A stretch of DNA of 64,000 nt, taken from contig NZ_CAJGZK010000007.1 in the NCBI RefSeq assembly GCF_904846215.1, positions 1-64,000 on the forward strand, read 5' to 3'. Below, piece after piece: positions 1,129-50,940 of the stretch. The position numbers and the translations under genes are program-made. The first letter of the stretch is position 1. Each line of letters opens with the position of its first letter. The DNA comes from Psychrobacter glacincola (lineage in GTDB: Bacteria; Pseudomonadota; Gammaproteobacteria; Pseudomonadales; Moraxellaceae). The notes beneath the pieces were generated by a model. That model made no database searches, was not told the DNA's origin, and worked only from the letters and a program-made list of their open reading frames with translations.

Positions 1129-1572
1129 GGGTATCTCTTATTTTTAGCAATATGCGTTATAAAGGGTGATGATTATTTTAAGTAATAGAGAGTGATACTT
1201 GAGAGAAAATAGGTTGTACCAGTTGCTTGATATAACCTGTCATTAATAACGCTTTAAGATACAGCCTTTTTTTCTTAAGGTTATCAATATATAGTAAATC
1301 CAGAATAAAAGAGATACAACCCATATCATGAAAGAGTTTAGGTAAATTATTCATCCTGGCGATTCCATGATCATTAAATTTATATTTAACAATGGCAGTT
1401 CAATGCCTGTATAGCGCATCGAACGTATTCCCTTAACAGGGTTTATGACGAATGACTTTGAATAGAAAAAGATCGTTTAAGGCGGTTCCATTGAGGTATA
1501 ACCCAAGGGAACCAATAATACGTCCAGTACCAACTTAATATTAAGTACCTACCTAGTTAGTCCTATAATTGC
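1129..1572. other. Intergenic region with a repeat remnant and a hairpin
   Basis: No convincing gene lies in these 444 bases. Two structures do. At about 1290-1319 is a fragment matching one end of the interspersed repeat family (TATAGT, then CAGAATAAAAGAGATAC), with no second half nearby. At 1484-1513 an inverted repeat (GGTTCCATTG ... CAAGGGAACC) encloses a GGTATAA loop. A similar GGTTCCCTTGAGGTATACC sequence occurs near 281-299. Confidence 0.5.
1290..1319 (+). repeat. Solo end fragment of the interspersed MITE family
   Basis: The sequence starts TATAGTAAATCC and continues AGAATAAAAGAGATAC, closely matching the left end of the copy at 12582. The core and right half are absent, so this is a deletion remnant or an abortive copy. 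Confidence 0.5.
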
Positions 1573-4652: not shown

Positions 4653-5488
4653 TATTTTTGTTGACTTATATCAGCACCAAAGAATTCTTCGCTCAGCTTG
4701 GTCAATGTACCATCGGCTTTTAATGCTGCCATTGCTTCATCTAATTTTGCCACCACAGCATCATCGCCTTTTAACAATACGATGCCTGAACCCGTCTGCT
4801 CACTGGCTGGAGCGACCAATTTAATCTCAAGGGCACTGTCTGGGAATTTTTTAAGATAATCCAATATCGCCAGATTGTCATTCATTGTGAAGTCAGCGCG
4901 GTCTTGTTTGACCAATTGAATCGCTTGTGCCATACCATCAACAGGGACGATTTCGGCTTCGTAGCGTTCTGCCAACTCCCCATAATTACTGCTTAGCGAC
5001 TGTGCTGAACGTAAGCCTTTCAAAGCTTCCCACGAGCTATAACGATTGTCGTCAGTCGGTGCTAGTACGACGGCGCCTGACCAGCTATAGGCGGTAGATT
5101 TATCGTATTTGGCTAGACGTTCAGGCGTCGTTAAGCTGACTTGGTTGGCCACCATATCGAAACGTTTTGAGTCTAAGCCTGCCAGCATGGCATCCCACTG
5201 AGTTTCCTTAAATTCCACCTCAACGCCCAATTTATCAGCGACTGCACGAGTCACTTCAACATCATAACCCGTCAGCTTGCCACTCTCATCATGGTAAGTG
5301 AACGGTGGATAAGTACCTTCAGTACCAACGTTGATGGTGCCACCATTATTGATACGTTGCAGCAAATCAGAGCCACCTGTCGCGGTACTGTCCGTCGCAT
5401 TGGTATCGGTTTCATTGGTGTTAGACTGACCACAAGCGGCAAGCAGTATCGTACTGGCAGCGAGGGCTAAAAGGTTACGACGTTTCAT
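4652..5488 (-). CDS. tcyJ: Cystine-type amino-acid-binding lipoprotein of an ABC importer
   Basis: A 278-residue type 3 periplasmic binding protein. The N-terminus is a lipoprotein signal (residues 1-19, lipobox LLAAC), so it should be tethered to a membrane. The mature part reads like E. coli FliY/Tcy[45 protein letters not shown], and the end [10 protein letters not shown] Thr/Asn-rich linker (residues 22-38) follows the lipidated cysteine. It is the first gene of the operon; AGGATGCCTT lies just before the ATG. The cystine specificity is inferred from similarity to FliY and was not tested. Confidence 0.82.
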
Positions 5489-6009
5489 AAGGCATCCTTA
5501 TAAGATGAATGAATAATACAAAAATATAACTGGAGCAAAACTATATAAGCAAAAAAATAACTAACTCATGAAATATAGAGAGGGCGATAAAGCCTATGTT
5601 CTATTATTTTTGTCTTTGGTTGCTCAATTTGAGGATAGTAAGCCTATTTTTCAATGCTACTTTTGGCATTAGGTTTAATTTTTAAGCATTTTTCCAGTAA
5701 TATTCATGTTTAATTAGAGTTGCTAGTCAGCGCTCATACTTATAGTCAGTTGAGTAGCAAGCTTAAAAGGCAAACTTAAAAGGCAAACAGTAGCTAAGTC
5801 ATATACTAACGCACTTCAGAAAGAATAAACGTACAAAAACAGTGAGCATGCGTAAGATTATTAGGTGGTGTTCTAAAAAGTATGCTGTCATCAGGCATAG
5901 CCATAATTAACATATAAGCCCTTGTTTTATATATTAATTTAAGCTGATAAACGTTATACTAGTCTTGGTATTGCCTTCTCTGAATCTCCCAATATTGAGA
6001 CCATAATTA
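5489..6009. other. Intergenic region between divergent genes
   Basis: No gene is visible in these 521 AT-rich bases between two divergently transcribed genes, so both promoters should be here. A tandem duplication of TTAAAAGGCAAAC occurs at about 5763-5789. No operator could be recognised. Confidence 0.4.
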
Positions 6010-6804
6010 ATGATGCGAAACACGTTACAAAATTTACTTTATAACAATAATTACGATCAACCAGACACCTCGGCTGCTGCTTTCAATACCTTGCCAAGCA
6101 TCATACAACAAGTGCTGTTACAACAGCAGCGTATTGTCTTAATTGCCAATAATCCCTCAATAAATACAGCGAGCTTAGAGGCGCTATTGCAGCCGACAGA
6201 TATGTTGGTTTTGTTTAATGACTTTATCCATGCTGATTTTTTCGCTAACAATCCTATCGTCCGAGATTTACCAAAATTGTTATTTTTTAGGCAAATTGGC
6301 GACAGCGCGTTGCATTTTGGACTACCGCCTCGTAGTAATAATTTGACTGCCATGTTAGATATGGCAAAGCAGGCACCATTAGGCATATTGTTTGGAAACA
6401 CTGATTATCAGTTTCCCCTGCCAGCTGACGATCCAAACCCTAATGATGATCCAATCACAGCCAGCCGAATACTAGATATCCCAAAACTACTAAATGATTT
6501 GCTGCATAGCGATGAGCATTGTCGCGTGCTATCAGAGCAGCATAGTGTGGTAGCGGATTATCCTATTTTTGCTGATATTCATTCATCCGCGCCGACCTCA
6601 GGATTTCTATTATATCGGCTATTATTAGCAGCGCGCTTAGAAGTGCAACAGCGACAAGACGTTGAGACGCCGCTCTCCATAGTCATGTTAGGCTTTAATG
6701 ATGAGGATAGAACCGCACACTTTTGGGAAGGGCATAATTGGGCATTTGAGAGACGAGAGCTTGCCACGCCGTTTGATAGTGTTGAGATTATTCGTCAGTA
6801 TTAA
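6010..6804 (+). CDS. Protein of unknown function beside glycosyltransferases
   Basis: I do not recognise this 264-residue protein with certainty. It has no signal peptide or membrane segment. Residues 42-75 alternate strand and helix (VLIANNPSINTAS ... MLVLFNDFIHADFF), a pattern like the nucleotide-sugar-binding start of sialyltransferase-like (GT29-type) folds. That resemblance is weak and is only a suggestion. It reads opposite to, and ends 37 bases from, the last gene of a minus-strand glycosyltransferase cluster, so a role in the same glycan pathway is plausible. The ATG pair at 6010/6013 has no strong ribosome site; the nearest is GAGA at 5998. Confidence 0.6.
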   Translation: MMRNTLQNLLYNNNYDQPDTSAAAFNTLPSIIQQVLLQQQRIVLIANNPSINTASLEALLQPTDMLVLFNDFIHADFFANNPIVRDLPKLLFFRQIGDSALHFGLPPRSNNLTAMLDMAKQAPLGILFGNTDYQFPLPADDPNPNDDPITASRILDIPKLLNDLLHSDEHCRVLSEQHSVVADYPIFADIHSSAPTSGFLLYRLLLAARLEVQQRQDVETPLSIVMLGFNDEDRTAHFWEGHNWAFERRELATPFDSVEIIRQY

Positions 6805-6841
6805 TAAATCAGTATCAATAAAATGAACTTATAAACCATAT

Positions 6842-7864
6842 CTAGACATAAGGCGCATCCGGATAGTGCGCCGCTGTAACCTCAGCGGCACTTGGCTGTC
6901 GATTGATACCAATCGGCACTGTCTGCATATCTCGCCAATCAATTAATTGCAGCTGCGCAAACTCTGCTAACCATCCCGACATTGGCCAATGCTGCCATTT
7001 CTCATAAAAACGATTGGCATTCATAACGATGCTATCTAGATGATTGAGTGGCGGTCTATAAACACTATGCTGCTGATGATAAATCACATCGTTGGTTAAA
7101 TAAAAATCAATGTTTGACGCCTGCGCCATAAAAGCAAAATCCGTATCTTCAGCGCCATAACCGACATAACTGGTATCAAAGCCGCCAATTTGCTCAAACT
7201 GACTGCGCATTATCGCAAAGCAAAGACTCCAAAACGCACCATAATCTTGCGTCTGTTTAATAGAGGTATAGCACTTTGTGTCCTGCTTTGAACCCTGCTG
7301 CTCTAGATCCTGCTGTTGCAAATAGAAGTTGTCACGATAAGGGTTAAAAACGGATAGTTTGTTTAAATAATCGCACGCTAATACTCCTTGTTGTAGCTGA
7401 TGACTTTCATCATCTGTTAAAGGACGCGTCAAATAACGCGGTTGACCCATCAATAAGGCGTTGGGATGCGCTTGTAATTTACTATATAGCTGCTCAATAA
7501 AGGTGGGCGCGACGATACAATCCACATCCAAGAAAATCATAGCATCATGTGTGGCACGCGCTGCGCCAAGGTTACGGTTACGACCAATATCGAAGGAAGC
7601 GCTATCTGCTACTCCATTCTCAGTCGTTGCAATCTTAACAATATTTAAATCGTATTGTGCAAGACATTCAGGCTTGGCATCGTCATTAACGATAATAACT
7701 TCTGCTGGTTGTACACTGCCCTGCGCCAAACTACTGAGTAGATTGGAGAGGTGACGATTGCGCCCATAGCAGGTGGTAATCACACTCAAAGGCACGCTAA
7801 CGGGAGTGGTGCTATGCGTAATGGTACTATGAGTGGCGTTTTGCGCTGTGGTTGTCGTTGTCAT
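6842..7864 (-). CDS. Family 2 glycosyltransferase with galactosyltransferase-type C-terminal domain
   Basis: A soluble 340-residue GT-A enzyme. The N-terminal nucleotide-sugar fold starts at PLSVITTCYGRNRHL (about residue 25). The metal-binding DxD-like motif is FLDVDC near residue 113, and the C-terminal acceptor domain GGFDTSYVGYGAEDTDFAF near 235 is typical of Glyco_transf_7C galactosyltransferases. It is the last gene of a four-gene minus-strand glycosyltransferase group. The Thr-rich first 20 residues look non-essential, and the start may lie further in. Donor sugar and acceptor are unknown. Confidence 0.8.
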   Translation of the reverse strand: MTTTTTAQNATHSTITHSTTPVSVPLSVITTCYGRNRHLSNLLSSLAQGSVQPAEVIIVNDDAKPECLAQYDLNIVKIATTENGVADSASFDIGRNRNLGAARATHDAMIFLDVDCIVAPTFIEQLYSKLQAHPNALLMGQPRYLTRPLTDDESHQLQQGVLACDYLNKLSVFNPYRDNFYLQQQDLEQQGSKQDTKCYTSIKQTQDYGAFWSLCFAIMRSQFEQIGGFDTSYVGYGAEDTDFAFMAQASNIDFYLTNDVIYHQQHSVYRPPLNHLDSIVMNANRFYEKWQHWPMSGWLAEFAQLQLIDWRDMQTVPIGINRQPSAAEVTAAHYPDAPYV

Positions 7865-45145: not shown

Positions 45146-48052
45146 ATGGCACATGAGTATATTAAGGTTCGCGGCGCACGCACTCATAATCTAAAAAATA
45201 TCGACTTAGACATTCCACGAGATAAATTTGTGGTGATTACGGGTTTATCAGGCTCTGGTAAATCGTCATTGGCATTCGATACCTTGTATGCTGAAGGGCA
45301 ACGTCGTTATGTCGAGAGCTTGTCGGCGTATGCGCGTCAGTTCTTATCTCAAATGGAGAAACCAGACGTTGATAGTATTGAAGGGCTGTCCCCTGCGATT
45401 GCTATCGAGCAAAAATCAACCAACCATAACCCACGCTCTACGGTCGGGACGATTACCGAGATTTATGATTATTTGCGTCTGCTTTATGCACGCATTGGTA
45501 CGCCCTATTGTCCAGAGCACGGCGAGCCGATGGTGGCGCAGTCGGTGACTGAGATGGTCGATCAGGTTATGGCATTGCCCGCTGATACTAAGATAATGAT
45601 TCTTGCGCCAGTCATCCGTGAGCGTAAAGGCGAGCATACGGTATTGCTTGAGCAATTAATTGGGCAAGGGTTTGTACGTGTGCGCGTCGATGGTGATGTC
45701 TACGATACTGACGAGCTACCGACATTGGATAAAAAGAAAAAACACACCATTGAAGTGGTGGTCGATCGCTTTAAAGTCCGTGATGACTTGGGTAATCGCG
45801 TTGCAGAAAGTTTAGAGACCGCTCTACGTTTGGGTCAAGGTTTGGTCACGCTACACTTTATGGAGGGTAATCCCAAAGAAGGCGGCGATGAAAACCAAGT
45901 GATGTCAGCTAAGCACTCTTGCCCTGTTTGTGATCGTGCGGTCTCTGAGCTTGAGCCGCGTATGTTTAGTTTTAACAACCCTTATGGCGCCTGCCCAAGC
46001 TGTGATGGTCTCGGTAAACGTCAGTATTTCTCTGCAGAAAAACTCATTACCCATCATGAGAAATCACTCAATCAAGGCGCAATCAATGGTTGGGATAAGC
46101 GTCATGCTTATTACTTTGGTTTGTTATCTACCGTCTGTAATCATTTTAAAATTGACATGGACAGTCCATGGCAAGAGCTGCCAAAAGCGCAGCAAGATAT
46201 CATTATGCAAGGCTCTGGTAAAGAAAAGCTGACCTTTAACTTTACCGATGAGCGCGGTCGTAAAACCAACAAGACTGTACCTTTTGAAGGCGTATTACCT
46301 TATTTAGAACGTCGCTATGCTAAAACCCAAAGCAATCTCGTCCGTGATGAGCTGGCGAAATATCTGGCAGATACCACTTGTAATGTCTGCGATGGCGCGC
46401 GTCTTAATGAAATATCACGCAATGTCCGTGTTGAGAATCACACCATCGCCGAAATCGTCAAACTGTCTATCGGTGACGCAGCTGACTATTATAAAACGCT
46501 AAAAATTGGCGGTCATAAAGGCGAAGTCGCTGAAAAAATCTTTAAAGAAATTAATGAGCGCTTAAATTTCCTCGTCAGTGTCGGTCTTGATTATTTATCC
46601 CTTGCCCGCTCTGCCGAAACGCTATCAGGCGGTGAAGCGCAACGTATTCGTCTTGCCAGCCAAATTGGCGCGGGTCTGATGGGCGTGATGTATGTCCTTG
46701 ATGAGCCATCTATTGGTCTACATCAGCGCGATAACGATCGCTTGCTAAAAACCTTAACGCGGCTGCGTGATTTGGGTAATACGGTGCTGGTCGTCGAGCA
46801 TGATGAAGATGCGATTCGTCAAGCGGATCACGTTATCGATATCGGTGTTGGCGCGGGTGTACATGGCGGACATATCATCGCTCAGGGTACGGTCGATGAC
46901 ATCATGGCAAATAAAGAATCGCTGACTGGACAATATATGTCTGGTAAGAAAAGAATCGAGATTCCTACTATTCGTCATAAAGCTAAAACGATAGATATGG
47001 AAGTCAAAGGCAAAGCCAAGCCCAAACAAGTTCCTATGACGATTGAGCTAAAAGGCGCATCTGGCAATAACTTGCACGATGTTGATTTGACCTTACCTAT
47101 TGGCATCATGACTTGTATCACAGGTGTTTCTGGCTCTGGTAAATCAACTTTGATTAATCGTACCTTGATGCCATTAGCCGCCACGCAGTTGAATAACGCC
47201 TCAACGCTGATTGCGGATAAGCATGACAGCATCAGTGGACTTGAGCATTTGGACAAAATGGTCGATATCGATCAAAGCCCAATTGGTCGTACGCCGCGCT
47301 CAAACCCAGCGACTTATACTGGCGTGTTTACGCCAGTACGTGAAATGTTTGCCCAAACACAAGAAGCACGCGCTCGTGGTTATAAAGCGGGTCGCTTTAG
47401 CTTCAACGTAAAAGGCGGGCGCTGTGAGATGTGCCAAGGCGATGGTCTTATCAAAGTCGAAATGCATTTCTTACCTGATATGTATGTGCCGTGTGATATC
47501 TGTGAAGGCAAACGCTATAACCGCGAGACTTTAGAGATTCATTATAAAGGCAAAAGCATCGCTGACGTCCTAGATATGACCGTTGAAGATGCGACTGAGT
47601 TCTTCTCAGCCATTCCAGCGATTTATCGTCGTCTGCAAGCTTTAATGGATGTTGGTCTTAGCTATATTCGTCTTGGACAGTCTGCACCGACGCTATCAGG
47701 TGGTGAAGCACAACGTGTTAAATTGGCGCGTGAGCTTGCCAAGCGTGATACGGGACAGACGCTGTATATCTTGGATGAGCCAACGACTGGTTTGCATTTT
47801 CATGATATCGATAAGCTGCTGCATATTCTGCATACCTTACGTGATAAAGGTAATACTATCGTCGTCATCGAGCACAATCTTGACGTCATCAAAACGGCTG
47901 ATTGGGTGATTGACCTTGGCCCTGAAGGCGGTAAAGGTGGCGGACTGATTATCGCTGAAGGTACGCCTGAGGAAGTGGCGGAAGTAAAAGGCTCATATAC
48001 GGGTGAGTTTTTAAAGCCGATGCTTAAGCAAGCAATGAAAGAAGTGAGTTAA
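45146..48052 (+). CDS. uvrA: Excinuclease ABC subunit A
   Basis: A 968-residue UvrA, the damage-recognition ATPase of nucleotide excision repair. First Walker [10 protein letters not shown] near 31. The first zinc module is CPVC ... CPSC near 255-283, with signature [16 protein letters not shown] near 490. The second Walker A is GVSGSGKST near 655, the second zinc module CEMC ... CDIC near 755-785 ([18 protein letters not shown]), and the second signature [15 protein letters not shown] near 850. Length is slightly above E. coli's 940. GGAAACC lies 10 bases before the ATG. A terminator follows. Confidence 0.97.
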
Positions 48053-48074
48053 TACAAGTTAGTTAACTTTTGAT

Positions 48075-48108
48075 AAAAGGCTACTCTTTAGGGGGTGGCC
48101 TTTTTTGT
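48075..48108 (+). terminator. Terminator of uvrA
   Basis: Stem AAAAGGCTAC / GGTGGCCTTTT (one bulge) with a TCTTTAGGG loop followed by T6. Confidence 0.78.
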
Positions 48109-49229
48109 TGGGTGAGGTTTTATATTCAATGCTAATATAGGCAATATTTTAAGAACATCTGTAAGGCAATGAGTAATGGCAAATGTAGAGAACCTCGAAA
48201 AAAAGCTTGTAAAGCTTATCGAAACTGACAACCCTTTTGCTGTTGCCCTCACAGGTGAATGGGGTATTGGTAAGACTTATTTCTGGAATAACTTTCGTGA
48301 TAAAAATAGAGAATCCTTTTCTGGTAAAAAGTATGCTTATGTATCTTTGTTTGGATTGGATTCGCTAGAGAGTCTCAAATTAGCAATCGCCACTGAAGTG
48401 CAAACAGATGCGGCTTACGATTCACCTTTGAGTGTCGATATTTCAAAGCATTTTAAGAAATTATTTGGATTCGTAGGTGGTGGAAATATCGGTGCATCAG
48501 GAGATATGCGCTTTGGTATTAATATTGGTAATAAACTCGTTACCAATATCATCATGTCTCATCTAAAAGACACATTAGTTTGCTTAGATGATATAGAAAG
48601 GAAATCAGATAGCTTACCAATGTCAGAAATATTGGGTTTGGTAAATTACTTAAGAAATGAGCGTAAGTGTCAAGTATTGATGATAATGCATGACGAAGAA
48701 TCAGAAGATAAAGACTATTTTGACAAATATAAAGAAAAGGTGTTTGATGAAGTCTTAATTTTAGACGACTCATTGTCAATTATTAAAGATAAGATTAGTG
48801 ATATCGAGACATTTCCTATCTACGAAAAATTTTATCAAACTATTGGTGTTAGAAACCTTAGATTTTATCAGCGTGTTCAGAAAACTTATCACGAAATAAT
48901 AAAACACTCATCATCTTTATCAAAGCTAAGCAAAGAAGAGATACTCAGACAAGTATTAATTATAAAGGCCGTATATGATATGCCTGATTTGTTCGGTATC
49001 GATATGAAACTATTTCAAACCTACTTTTCTGACCGTCATTTAGATGAGCGTATTGAAGCCAGAAGATTTGGTAGCGAAGAAGAAAAAGCAAGGTTAAATG
49101 ATAAAATTGATAAAGCGAAACGAATCATAGAAAAATTTCATAAAAAATTTAGATTGGAAAGCTGGGCTATAGTAAATCCTTTATAAAGATAGTACAGTAG
49201 TTTTAAAACAAGCGAAAAGTAAAAAGATT

Positions 49230-49571
49230 ATGACTTACTCAGCAGATTTCCGTGCTCAAGTGATTAAAAGTGTCGAAAAACAAGGCATGAGTATCAGGCA
49301 AGCTTGTGCATTCTATGACATTAGTAAGGCCACGCTACAGAATTGGCTCAAAGATCCTAGTATCAAACTAACTCGCAATAAACCACCCAGTAAAATACCT
49401 AATGAAGCGCTATTAATAGATATTGAACAGTATCCAGACGATTACATGTACGAGAGAGCACAGCGTTTTGACTGTAGTAAGTCGGGTATCAAGGCCGCTT
49501 TAAAACGTCTTGGCATTAGCCAAAAAAAAGACCTTAGCGCATCCAAAAGCTTGCCCCCTAAAGAGAGCTAA
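49230..49571 (+). CDS. IS630-family transposase, OrfA (helix-turn-helix part)
   Basis: A 113-codon frame beginning MTYSADFRAQVIKSVEKQG, with the helix-turn-helix MSIRQACAFYDISKATLQNWLKD (about 22-45). The useful protein ends near SQKK, where eight A at 49522-49529 allow a +1 shift into the OrfB frame. The last residues of the zero frame are probably not made in the fused product. This start has no strong ribosome site. Confidence 0.85.
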   Translation: MTYSADFRAQVIKSVEKQGMSIRQACAFYDISKATLQNWLKDPSIKLTRNKPPSKIPNEALLIDIEQYPDDYMYERAQRFDCSKSGIKAALKRLGISQKKDLSASKSLPPKES

Positions 49572-50070
49572 GTATCAAAGAAAACTGGGCGACTACATCG
49601 CTCAAGGCTATGCAATTGTATACATGGATGAGAGTGGCTTTGAGGCCGAGACCATTCGCTCTCATGGCTATGCACCTATTGGAACCCCTTGCATTGATCG
49701 CTATAACTGGCAAGGCAAAAAGCGCACCAACGTTATTGGTGCCTTATATAAAAAAGCGTTATTTGCACTTGATTACTTTGAGAAGAATATCAATGGAGAT
49801 ATATTTTATAACTGGTGCAAAACCACGCTAATCCCGAGCCTTAAACGTAAGTGTGTGATTGTTATGGATAATGCCAGCTTTCACAAACGGGTTCAGAGGC
49901 TGCTAAATAGACATGGTCATCGCCTACTATTTCTACCGCCTTACAGCCCTGATTTAAACCCTATTGAGAAAAAATGGGCACAGGCTAAGTTTCTACGACA
50001 AGGATGGATGGAAAATAATCTAACTAAACTGTTCCATGATATGGGATGTACTAATTTTATTGTGGATTGA
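49510..50070 (+). CDS. IS630-family transposase, OrfB (DDE catalytic part)
   Basis: The catalytic half of the transposase, in the +1 frame relative to OrfA. It reads KKTLAHPKACPLKRAKYQRKL after the A8 run, then the catalytic residues D in YMDESGFEAE, D in VIVMDNASFHK and E in NPIEKKWAQAK, the DDE set of IS630/Tc1-type enzymes. The frame has no convincing start of its own, so it should be made by frameshifting or transcriptional slippage on A8. A simple mutation in one A is the alternative. The stop TGA is inside the right inverted repeat. Confidence 0.85.
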   Translation: MALAKKKTLAHPKACPLKRAKYQRKLGDYIAQGYAIVYMDESGFEAETIRSHGYAPIGTPCIDRYNWQGKKRTNVIGALYKKALFALDYFEKNINGDIFYNWCKTTLIPSLKRKCVIVMDNASFHKRVQRLLNRHGHRLLFLPPYSPDLNPIEKKWAQAKFLRQGWMENNLTKLFHDMGCTNFIVD

Positions 50071-50658
50071 CTATAGCAATTACAATGAGTCTTACTGGTA
50101 TCCGTCAGGAGTAGATGGTGATGATATTTTCTATGAATATCTTGGCAATATCTCACTATCCTATTCTTCCAATGTAGATAATAAAGATAAATATCATACG
50201 TTATTCGATGATTACTTCCATAATAAGACTTATGATGATAAAAATTTTGACCTGAGTCTGTTAAACATAAACAAGTCAGAACTCAGGGGTATTCTTTGGA
50301 AACCTCTAAGCGATGAGAGAGACCGAAAATCATATATCGCTCATGTTATAAGTTATCCAGCATTTAGACATCATATTATTTCTTTAAAGTTCATCGAGGA
50401 TTGGAACACCCTGTCATGGAATTATTCAAATAGATATATCAGCCCAACAATCACTTTTAATAACCTAATTTATATTATGAAGAAAGACATACTACGCCAA
50501 TGGACATTGGAGCTACTGAAAGAAAAAATAGAAGAAAACCCTAATAGTCGAGCGCCAATTGAAATGTGGTTGAATATTACCGATAATTTAAACTATATTT
50601 AAATCATAAGGGAAGGCAAAATTTTGTCAAATTGGCCTTTATAGATAAATTATCTAAC

Positions 50659-50940
50659 CTAGATAAACTCTTTCTCAACATTCATCACCCGTGCATCTAC
50701 CGTCCGCTCTATCTTTTCCTCGATTTGGCTGCATTGCGACTCGACCTCACGTTTGGACAGCCCGACGATCACAAACGCCCACTCGCTGGCCTCATGCCGA
50801 TCACGCTCACCGCTCTCACATACCGCGACACTTGGCGTATTGCCAAAGCGAGCATGCAAGCCGCCCATACGTTGGCGCTTCTCTTTTAACGAGCCACAAC
50901 CGGGTAGAGTAAAGCTTAAAGTTAGAATGACGATATGCAT
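50659..50940 (-). CDS. DUF503 family protein
   Basis: A 93-residue protein with the DUF503 hallmarks: MHIVILTLSFTLPGCGSLKEKR at the N-terminus, then the RFGNTPSVAVCESGERDRHEASEWAFVIV strand-helix-strand segment, and a charged C-terminal helix. Members (YlxP-like in Firmicutes) are short and of unknown function, often near ribosome or translation genes. Ribosome site AAGGAG precedes the ATG. The gene is GC-richer than the KAP/IS segment next to it, marking the edge of the acquired piece. Confidence 0.8.
   Translation of the reverse strand: MHIVILTLSFTLPGCGSLKEKRQRMGGLHARFGNTPSVAVCESGERDRHEASEWAFVIVGLSKREVESQCSQIEEKIERTVDARVMNVEKEFI

What the first reader, a model, noticed from the sequence alone, without database searches (positions are those of the whole stretch)
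48176..50602. KAP P-loop NTPase gene cleanly inactivated by the IS630 element
Removing 49170-50073 and one TA joins the two parts in frame (…SWA|SNYNE…) into 506 codons with no other damage, so the insertion is recent. The gene is AT-rich and sits alone between uvrA and DUF503. KAP-family NTPases include phage-exclusion proteins (PifA), so this may be a defence gene lost, or reversibly switched off, by transposition.
Basis: partly seen in the sequence, partly recalled or inferred. Interest (0 to 1): 0.65.

Follow-up and report, generated by a model that had tools for sequence, protein, structure and literature searches.

The report
Broken candidate phage-defence gene in hotspot
A bacterial gene of a suspected virus-defence family has been broken for good by a jumping gene at a point where about a third of a kilobase is also missing, and it sits in a chromosomal slot where related bacteria carry different defence genes joined at copies of a transcription terminator.

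Summary
The IS630 element (49170-50073, TA on both sides) and the split KAP NTPase gene are real, and both halves belong to one gene. The insertion is not clean. In 14 of 14 genus orthologues that span the point, 108 residues lie where the window has only the IS; 38 of 38 aligned longer relatives, including other phyla, have 103-115 there. About 324 bp are missing, in frame, so excision would leave a 506-codon internal deletion, not the gene. 'No other damage' and 'reversibly switched off' fall.

The family matches PADLOC's unproven defence candidate PDC-S49; defence is inferred, not shown. All 16 genus copies lie directly after uvrA, in a variable slot that elsewhere holds AbiH, AbiU/AIPR, GmrSD, NACHT or PDDEXK genes. 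Two relatives carry clean IS insertions in the same gene.

Beyond the finding: alleles are mosaics, and the uvrA terminator, found almost only here, is repeated between cargo genes in 21 of 105 genomes. In several pairs cassettes differ exactly at these copies. The slot resembles a Neisseria minimal mobile element with terminators as joints.

The parts
45146..48052 (+). uvrA, conserved left neighbour of the variable slot
   Evidence: ORF of 968 aa; a match at E <= 1e-200 in 105 of 105 genus genomes
48076..48106 (+). uvrA terminator-like hairpin (AAAGGCTACTCTTTAGGGGGTGGCCTTTTTT); repeated between cargo genes in other genomes
   Evidence: 48066-48116 folds at -19.4 kcal/mol, z -4.2; one copy in the own genome; 97 matches in 74 of 105 genomes, 95 of them downstream of uvrA on its contig and strand. 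The general terminator scan did not list it
48107..48175 (+). leader of the KAP cassette, appears to travel with the gene
   Evidence: KAP ATG lies 97-101 bp after the start of a terminator copy in 13 of 16 loci
48176..49168 (+). KAP NTPase gene, left fragment: codons 1-331 (P-loop domain and first helices); the frame reads on into the IS to 49186
   Evidence: PF07693 7.4e-8; PADLOC PDC-S49 4.1e-26; 76% identical to G090
49170..50073 (+). IS630-family element, 904 bp, ends TAGTAAATCC / TAGTCAATCC (right end as reverse complement), TA on both sides; about 324 bp of the gene are missing at this point
   Evidence: ends fixed by other copies; missing 108 codons
49230..49571 (+). IS630 transposase first frame (HTH_Tnp_IS630)
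   Evidence: PF01710 5.6e-18
49510..50070 (+). IS630 transposase second frame (DDE_3), +1 relative to the first
   Evidence: PF13358 3.2e-30; NF033545 108.7 bits, cut-off 100; same frame offset in 5 of 7 copies examined, window included; the exact motif was not found in the other 2
50075..50602 (+). KAP NTPase gene, right fragment: last 175 codons and stop
   Evidence: matches the C-terminal part of the orthologues at 25-34%, and 49% over 37 aa in G100
50659..50940 (-).
   Evidence: ORF of 93 aa; match in 85 of 105 genus genomes

Best explanation
The locus is an irreversibly broken allele of a single-gene KAP-type NTPase family (PADLOC candidate PDC-S49). SHOWN: an IS630 copy stands where 108 codons are missing that all aligned orthologues have, in frame; the gene is one of many alternative cargo genes in the slot after uvrA. 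INFERRED: (1) the deletion came with the IS, most likely by recombination between two IS copies at two TA sites or by a transposase-made adjacent deletion; (2) the intact protein is an anti-phage NTPase in which the N-terminal ATPase drives a response and the variable C-terminal helices sense or act; (3) cassettes, each with its terminator-proximal leader, are exchanged by homologous recombination in uvrA/terminator copies on the left and the next conserved gene on the right, and loss by IS insertion (3 of 16 copies) is part of the turnover.
For: Deletion: 108 residues in 14 of 14 orthologues; Trp-Tyr spacing 118 in 14 of 14 against 10; 103-115 residues in 38 of 38 relatives of 535 aa or more, and 87-123 in all 23 further relatives whose frame runs 100 or more residues past the block; no other copy of the stretch found in the genome. 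The lost part is about five helices with block pLDDT 87-95, its last residues in a block of 77, in the model of an orthologue (mean pLDDT 81, pTM 0.65). TA at the right flank would occur by chance at 9-11% of positions. Defence: PDC-S49 in 38 of 38; the 16 strong genus copies all lie in the slot; other slot cargo includes AbiH, AbiU/AIPR, GmrSD, NACHT, PDDEXK; the ATPase domain aligns with ORC/Cdc6, TnsC and the RADAR protein RdrA (Z about 13) and with Avs4 in Foldseek (E 5e-4). Exchange; segment trees reject each other.
Against: No function was tested. PDC-S49 is only a candidate, and the profile matches the N-terminal half alone. Distant homologues lie near DnaB-like helicase and primase genes on a 109-kb E. 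coli plasmid record and three genes from a CI-like repressor in Campylobacter prophage CJIE4, which may point to replication or lysogeny. PADLOC gave no match for 10 of 18 other cargo representatives, two more matches were weak and one was a short motif; by eye some cargo is not defence-like (lipoproteins, an exporter-like protein). The order of deletion and IS cannot be proved without a close relative: the nearest allele is 84% identical in the N segment and 31% in the C-terminal part.
Confidence: 0.7

Rival explanations
1. One reading: a clean, recent, possibly reversible IS630 insertion into an otherwise whole 506-codon gene.
For: TA on both sides, in-frame join, no other stop in either half.
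Against: All 14 orthologues that span the point have 108 more codons, and 38 of 38 longer relatives have 103-115 there. The insertions in G072 and G100 show what a clean insertion looks like: ATT repeated and no codon lost.
Confidence: 0.03
2. The 108 codons were lost first, in frame, giving a shorter working allele, and the IS later landed by chance at the joint.
For: The deletion is in frame (one chance in three without selection), and its ends fall near the start of a predicted helix and after another.
Against: The IS lies within about 10 codons of the joint in a 506-codon gene with TA at 9-11% of positions; none of the 38 longer relatives, nor of 23 further ones whose frame runs past the block, lacks it (12 of 80 loci were too short to align); the block is well-ordered in the model.
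Confidence: 0.1
3. The family works in replication or lysogeny of mobile elements and is not a defence system; in the slot it is selfish or regulatory cargo.
For: Homologues near DnaB-like helicase and primase genes on an E. coli plasmid record and near a CI-like repressor in prophage CJIE4; ORC/Cdc6/TnsC-like ATPase fold.
Against: In Psychrobacter the gene stands alone in a slot whose other large cargo includes abortive-infection and restriction genes; PADLOC lists the family as a defence candidate. Prophages also carry defence genes (established knowledge).
Confidence: 0.22
4. The left fragment (336-aa ORF with a whole P-loop domain) is still made and works by itself or interferes with other NTPases.
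For: P-loop and Walker B region and leader intact.
Against: The 12 whole genus copies and the 38 aligned relatives all have the C-terminal part; but relatives with short or broken frames exist (12 loci under 400 aa, 5 of them cut by a contig end), so short forms are not excluded.
Confidence: 0.06

Closest known systems
PADLOC PDC-S49 (phage defence candidate; profiles of 619-629 positions)
   Same: The left fragment and 38 of 38 aligned relatives match; single gene; similar full length (whole genus copies 578-627 aa).
   Different: The window copy is broken. The best profile matches only residues 19-264 of the left half; the C-terminal parts differ strongly. No paper in the library holds the name PDC-S49.
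Tmn, a KAP-family NTPase defence system (passages of PMC11846954)
   Same: KAP-family NTPase.
   Different: Tmn has two transmembrane domains by that paper; no transmembrane prediction was run here.
IS630 family insertion sequence
   Same: Two-frame transposase with HTH and DDE_3, TA on both sides, short inverted ends.
   Different: The insertion goes with loss of about 324 bp of the target.
Minimal mobile element of Neisseria (passages of PMC3082526)
   Same: Different whole-gene cassettes between two conserved genes; incorporation attributed there to homologous recombination; no integrase gene beside the KAP genes here (by eye).
   Different: Here the left joint is a terminator that recurs between cassettes, up to 3 copies; no such feature appeared in the passages read.
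Core defence hotspots cDHS1/cDHS2 of Pseudomonas aeruginosa (passages of PMC10250203)
   Same: Fixed core flanks, many alternative immune genes; low GC (there the hotspot, here the KAP genes).
   Different: Much smaller (0.6-8.2 kb in 66 slots), mostly one to a few genes; joints between cassettes are visible. The paper leaves open how such hotspots are built.

Membership tests
KAP family NTPase (Pfam PF07693) | profile match above the curated cut-off | tested here: met
   32.4 bits against 20; 35 of 38 relatives match at E <= 0.01
KAP family NTPase (Pfam PF07693) | Walker A and Walker B motifs (motif names recalled) | tested here: met
   GEWGIGKT and LVCLDDIER in the translation; G27 E28 W29 G30 G32 K33 T34 and D134 D135 E137 R138 invariant in the 38 aligned relatives
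KAP family NTPase (Pfam PF07693) | transmembrane segments inserted in the NTPase domain (from the title of Aravind 2004, seen in the references of PMC11846954) | not tested
   no transmembrane predictor run; residues 82-126 are two helices, mostly of low confidence, in the model
PADLOC PDC-S49 | match to the family profile | tested here: met
   4.1e-26; 38 of 38 relatives at E <= 1e-5
PADLOC PDC-S49 | match over the full length of the profile | tested here: inconclusive
   profile positions 23-274 of 624 only; right half has no match
PADLOC PDC-S49 | protection against phage | not testable with these tools
   needs an experiment
IS630 insertion sequence | HTH and DDE transposase of the family | tested here: met
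   PF01710 5.6e-18, PF13358 3.2e-30; NF033545 above cut-off for the second frame
IS630 insertion sequence | TA target duplicated, short inverted ends (recalled) | tested here: met
   TA at 49168-49169 and 50074-50075; ends TAGTAAATCC/TAGTCAATCC; TA also beside the 3 other copies printed
clean (simple) insertion | no target sequence lost | tested here: not met
   108 codons missing
Minimal mobile element | different whole-gene cassettes between two conserved genes in different strains | tested here: met
   76 slots, 85 clusters of mechanical ORFs of 90 aa or more, KAP included; slot 610-8,190 bp in the 66 where DUF503 was matched; upstream gap MFS-uvrA 535-1,020 bp in 15 KAP-bearing loci. In some genomes DUF503 is far from uvrA or on another contig
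Minimal mobile element | incorporation by homologous recombination | tested here: inconclusive
   cassette differences joint at terminator copies; the process itself was not observed
Core defence hotspot | several different immune genes between fixed core genes | tested here: met
   PDC-S49, PDC-S26, PDC-S31, AbiH, AbiU, GmrSD and NACHT cargo; several of these are only candidates

The most novel reading that the evidence does not exclude
The uvrA-DUF503 slot of Psychrobacter is a cassette array for immune genes without a recombinase of its own. Each cassette starts with a copy of the uvrA terminator and a ~70-bp leader, and the terminator serves as the joint for gain, loss and replacement of single-gene cassettes, while the KAP proteins themselves are reassorted in blocks (N-terminal ATPase, middle, C-terminal), giving combinatorial immune diversity between strains. 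The window shows the end state of one such allele.
Probability: 0.4. Interest if true: 0.7.

Novelty: new variant of a known kind. Interest (0 to 1): 0.48.

Why it matters
The broken gene alone is ordinary: an insertion sequence has killed an accessory gene. The comparison shows two things of wider use. First, a TA-flanked IS630 with an in-frame join can look like a clean insertion and still hide a large deletion, because a two-base target copy carries almost no information. Second, the slot gives a compact, comparable set of loci in which joints between immune-gene cassettes can be read at base resolution, which bears on the question, left open for Pseudomonas hotspots (passages of PMC10250203), of how such hotspots are built and moved. 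The mosaic KAP alleles offer natural chimeras for mapping which segment decides phage specificity, if the family proves to be a defence system.

Tried and rejected
Right half as an unrelated gene: rejected. Missing stretch moved elsewhere in the genome: not found. IS630 freshly multiplied in this genome: the other matches are partial and 83% or less; the nearest whole copies in the genus are 86-91%. Dating the insertion: not possible, no close orthologue; 5.8% of single substitutions in the left half would make a stop, so an open frame is a weak clock. G048 as a fourth broken copy: set aside for the count of IS-broken copies, because uvrA is frameshifted in the same assembly (84% complete), so sequence errors are likely; it is still used for the 108-residue count. 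First tree run failed and was repeated with a fixed model. First structure model was poor (pLDDT 66) and was replaced. Solved-structure search by sequence gave two matches near E 0.7-0.8, taken as chance. The structure comparison covered mainly residues 1-274, so the C-terminal helices are untested. The 38 relatives of alignment A3 were picked for long frames (535 aa or more) from 80 loci; of the other 42, 30 with frames of 400 aa or more were added afterwards: 23 run 100 or more residues past the block and have 87-123 residues in it, 7 end inside or within 52 residues after it with 72-108, and 12 were too short to align. uvrA control for mosaicism was not clean: five of six comparisons between trees of its thirds are rejected at 0.05 (AU p down to 0.0003), but DNA identities of a pair differ by at most 8 points between thirds, against up to 63 points between KAP protein segments. 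KAP segment borders were chosen after seeing the alignment. The terminator-end statistic uses non-independent pairs, and a conserved terminator alone could end alignments there; the extra copies cannot be explained that way. Of the pairs compared, G065/G054 shows the joint only in part and G010/G016 not at all. Cargo proteins were scanned as 18 chosen representatives of 84 non-KAP clusters, picked mostly for size; for 10 slots without a DUF503 match the first 5 kb (or less) were taken and may reach beyond the slot. The share of defence genes is therefore not an estimate.

Full report
OBSERVATION. The IS carries the two IS630 transposase parts (PF01710 5.6e-18; PF13358 3.2e-30), the second frame at +1 to the first; the same offset was seen in 5 of 7 copies examined, the window's included. 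Copies in other genus genomes (seven at 86-91% end to end) fix the ends at 49170 and 50073, with TA on both sides.

THE INSERTION IS NOT CLEAN. The left half hits 20 of 105 genus genomes. Sixteen, the window's own included, are strong and lie directly after uvrA; DUF503 was matched on the other side in 14 of them (one weakly), not in G048 and G051. The other four hits are weak and lie on another contig or about 400 kb from uvrA. Twelve of the 16 are whole (578-627 aa). In all 14 copies that span the point (12 whole, plus G072 and G048), 108 residues stand where the window has only the IS. The distance between an almost invariant Trp and an invariant Tyr is 118 in 14 of 14 and 10 in the window. 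In a wider set of 38 relatives with long frames, from Psychrobacter to Sulfurovum, cyanobacteria and Verrucomicrobiota (by record titles), 38 have 103-115 residues there. Of the 42 other loci of that search, 30 were added later: 23 whose frame runs 100 or more residues past the block have 87-123 residues in it; 7 are cut short near it; 12 were too short to align. The window's genome gave no second copy of the block. In the predicted structure of a whole orthologue (614 aa, mean pLDDT 81, pTM 0.65) the lost stretch (residues 327-434) is about five helices, mostly of high confidence. Excision of the IS would leave a protein without a part that these relatives keep.

HOW THE DELETION AROSE (inference). 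The TA on the right flank has a 9-11% chance at a random break in this gene, which favours an event that uses TA sites: two IS630 insertions followed by recombination between them, or a transposase-made adjacent deletion. An older deletion with a later IS at its joint is less likely. Two other copies, G072 and G100, carry elements with transposases that I take by eye for IS5-like, at different codons, with ATT repeated and no loss. So 3 of 16 copies are broken by IS elements at different places. G048 is also split, but in an assembly with frameshifts in uvrA too, and is not counted.

WHAT THE GENE IS. PF07693 (above cut-off); PADLOC PDC-S49 in the left half (4e-26) and in 38 of 38 relatives. 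The ATPase domain of the model (about residues 1-270) aligns with ORC/Cdc6, TnsC and RdrA at Z about 13, a level that many AAA+ chains in the list share; Avs4 appears in Foldseek at 5e-4. Pfam showed no effector domain shared by the family. Distant homologues occur in 64 plasmid and 5 phage records, none covering 80% of the query, among them a 109-kb E. coli plasmid record where the gene lies near DnaB-like helicase and primase genes and prophage CJIE4. Defence is the most likely role but is not shown.

THE SLOT. In 76 genomes read, the interval from uvrA to the nearest DUF503 match was measurable in 66 and runs from 610 bp (G030, 99% identical uvrA, no ORF of 90 aa or more) to 8,190 bp. The gap on the other side of uvrA is 535-1,020 bp in the 15 KAP-bearing loci examined. 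Mechanical ORFs of 90 aa or more fall into 85 clusters, transposases included. Of 18 non-KAP representatives scanned with PADLOC, 8 matched: PDC-S26 (PDDEXK), AbiH, GmrSD (HEC-06), AbiU (AIPR), PDC-S31, two weak ones (PRTase_III-A, C3a159) and one short motif; 10 did not. Ten of the 18 were scanned with Pfam, which added NACHT and RelA/SpoT. Searches for a uvrA-linked or Psychrobacter defence hotspot found no paper on one (listings only).

MOSAIC ALLELES. Protein identities jump along the gene: G056-G071 89/37/31/26% (N, middle, block, C), G056-G090 43/83/59/65%, G056-G051 88/46/73/89%. Trees of three segments from the 12 whole copies reject each other in six of six tests (AU p from 0.002 down to 8e-125). 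The alleles do not follow the hosts: G056 and G042 have 93-95% identical uvrA DNA but 63/43/32/28% identical KAP segments. uvrA itself shows milder conflict (five of six tests). The window allele is 84% (N) and 66% (middle) identical to G090, but its C-terminal part is at most 33% identical to any over the aligned length.

TERMINATOR JOINTS. The 31-base uvrA terminator (48076-48106; hairpin z -4.2) occurs once in the window genome. In 105 genomes there are 97 matches at up to 3 mismatches in 74 genomes; the reversed control pattern gives none. 95 of 97 lie downstream of uvrA on its contig and strand, 69 within 80 bp and the farthest 5,471 bp away; two (G058, G097) lie on other contigs. Nineteen genomes have two copies and two have three. 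In the slots read, 19 of 76 have at least two (up to 4 mismatches), mostly between cargo genes. The KAP ATG lies 97-101 bp after the start of a copy in 13 of 16 loci, whether that is the first or the second; in the other three no copy was found at that place at this stringency. G051 and G020 differ by a unit of about 590 bp bounded by terminator copies; G042/G098, G084/G033 and G049/G045 show like joints; G065/G054 only in part, G010/G016 not. Among 56 genomes with a first copy, for 1,363 pairs with different first cargo similarity after uvrA ends a median of 3 bp past the terminator, 1,147 within 12 bp; for 113 pairs with the same first cargo 74 run on for more than 100 bp. Pairs are not independent. 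Two extra copies (G002, G018) also carry more than 100 bp of the sequence before the terminator, the end of uvrA included, which fits homologous recombination with donor DNA better than a fixed-site recombinase.

COMPARISON. The slot fits the definition of a minimal mobile element (passages of PMC3082526) and of a core defence hotspot (passages of PMC10250203), with terminator joints as the feature not seen in those passages. PMC10250203 names flank-mediated homologous recombination as a possible way of transfer and calls the building of such hotspots future work. Tmn is a KAP-family defence system with transmembrane domains (passages of PMC11846954). PDC means 'phage defence candidate' (passages of PMC11514479).

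VERDICT. Observation partly confirmed: right gene, right IS, wrong about the damage. The finding as given is ordinary; the mosaic cassette slot around it is of moderate to good interest.

Noticed in passing
uvrA-DUF503 slots of G009, G028, G068, G070, G042, G051 and others: The uvrA terminator occurs two to three times between cargo genes, almost nowhere else in the genomes, and several cassette differences lie exactly at these copies.
   Followed up: partly
G072 (L045) and G100 (L036), slot after uvrA: Clean insertions of IS5-like elements (by eye) in the same KAP gene at two different codons, each with ATT repeated.
   Followed up: yes
G023:C2:207918-208130, G085:C1:325567-325779, G094:C1:289288-289479: Second, partial copies of DUF503 (its C-terminal part) near the slot, as if the right joint were sometimes duplicated too.
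   Followed up: no
L128 (Aggregatibacter actinomycetemcomitans DSM 8324) 6001-7682; also L131 and L171: L128 is matched over residues 1-620 but its open frame ends after 463 codons; L131 and L171 also have short frames. Broken copies may be common in the family.
   Followed up: no
L200 (NZ_AP017612.1) 4995-6689: A KAP homologue near DnaB-like helicase and primase genes of a 109-kb E. coli plasmid record; a phage record of like size (CP054387.1) also holds one. A possible replication link of the family.
   Followed up: partly
window 1292-1351 (minus strand) and other places in the own genome: Partial matches to the IS630 element at 83% or less, so the genome holds older or different IS630 relatives.
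   Followed up: no
G005, G022, G052, G053, G057 slots: An unnamed ~310-aa gene on the minus strand followed by a PDDEXK/PDC-S26 gene on the plus strand recurs in five genomes (in G005 with a transposase between); the unnamed partner (no Pfam or PADLOC match for the one scanned) may belong to that candidate system.
   Followed up: no
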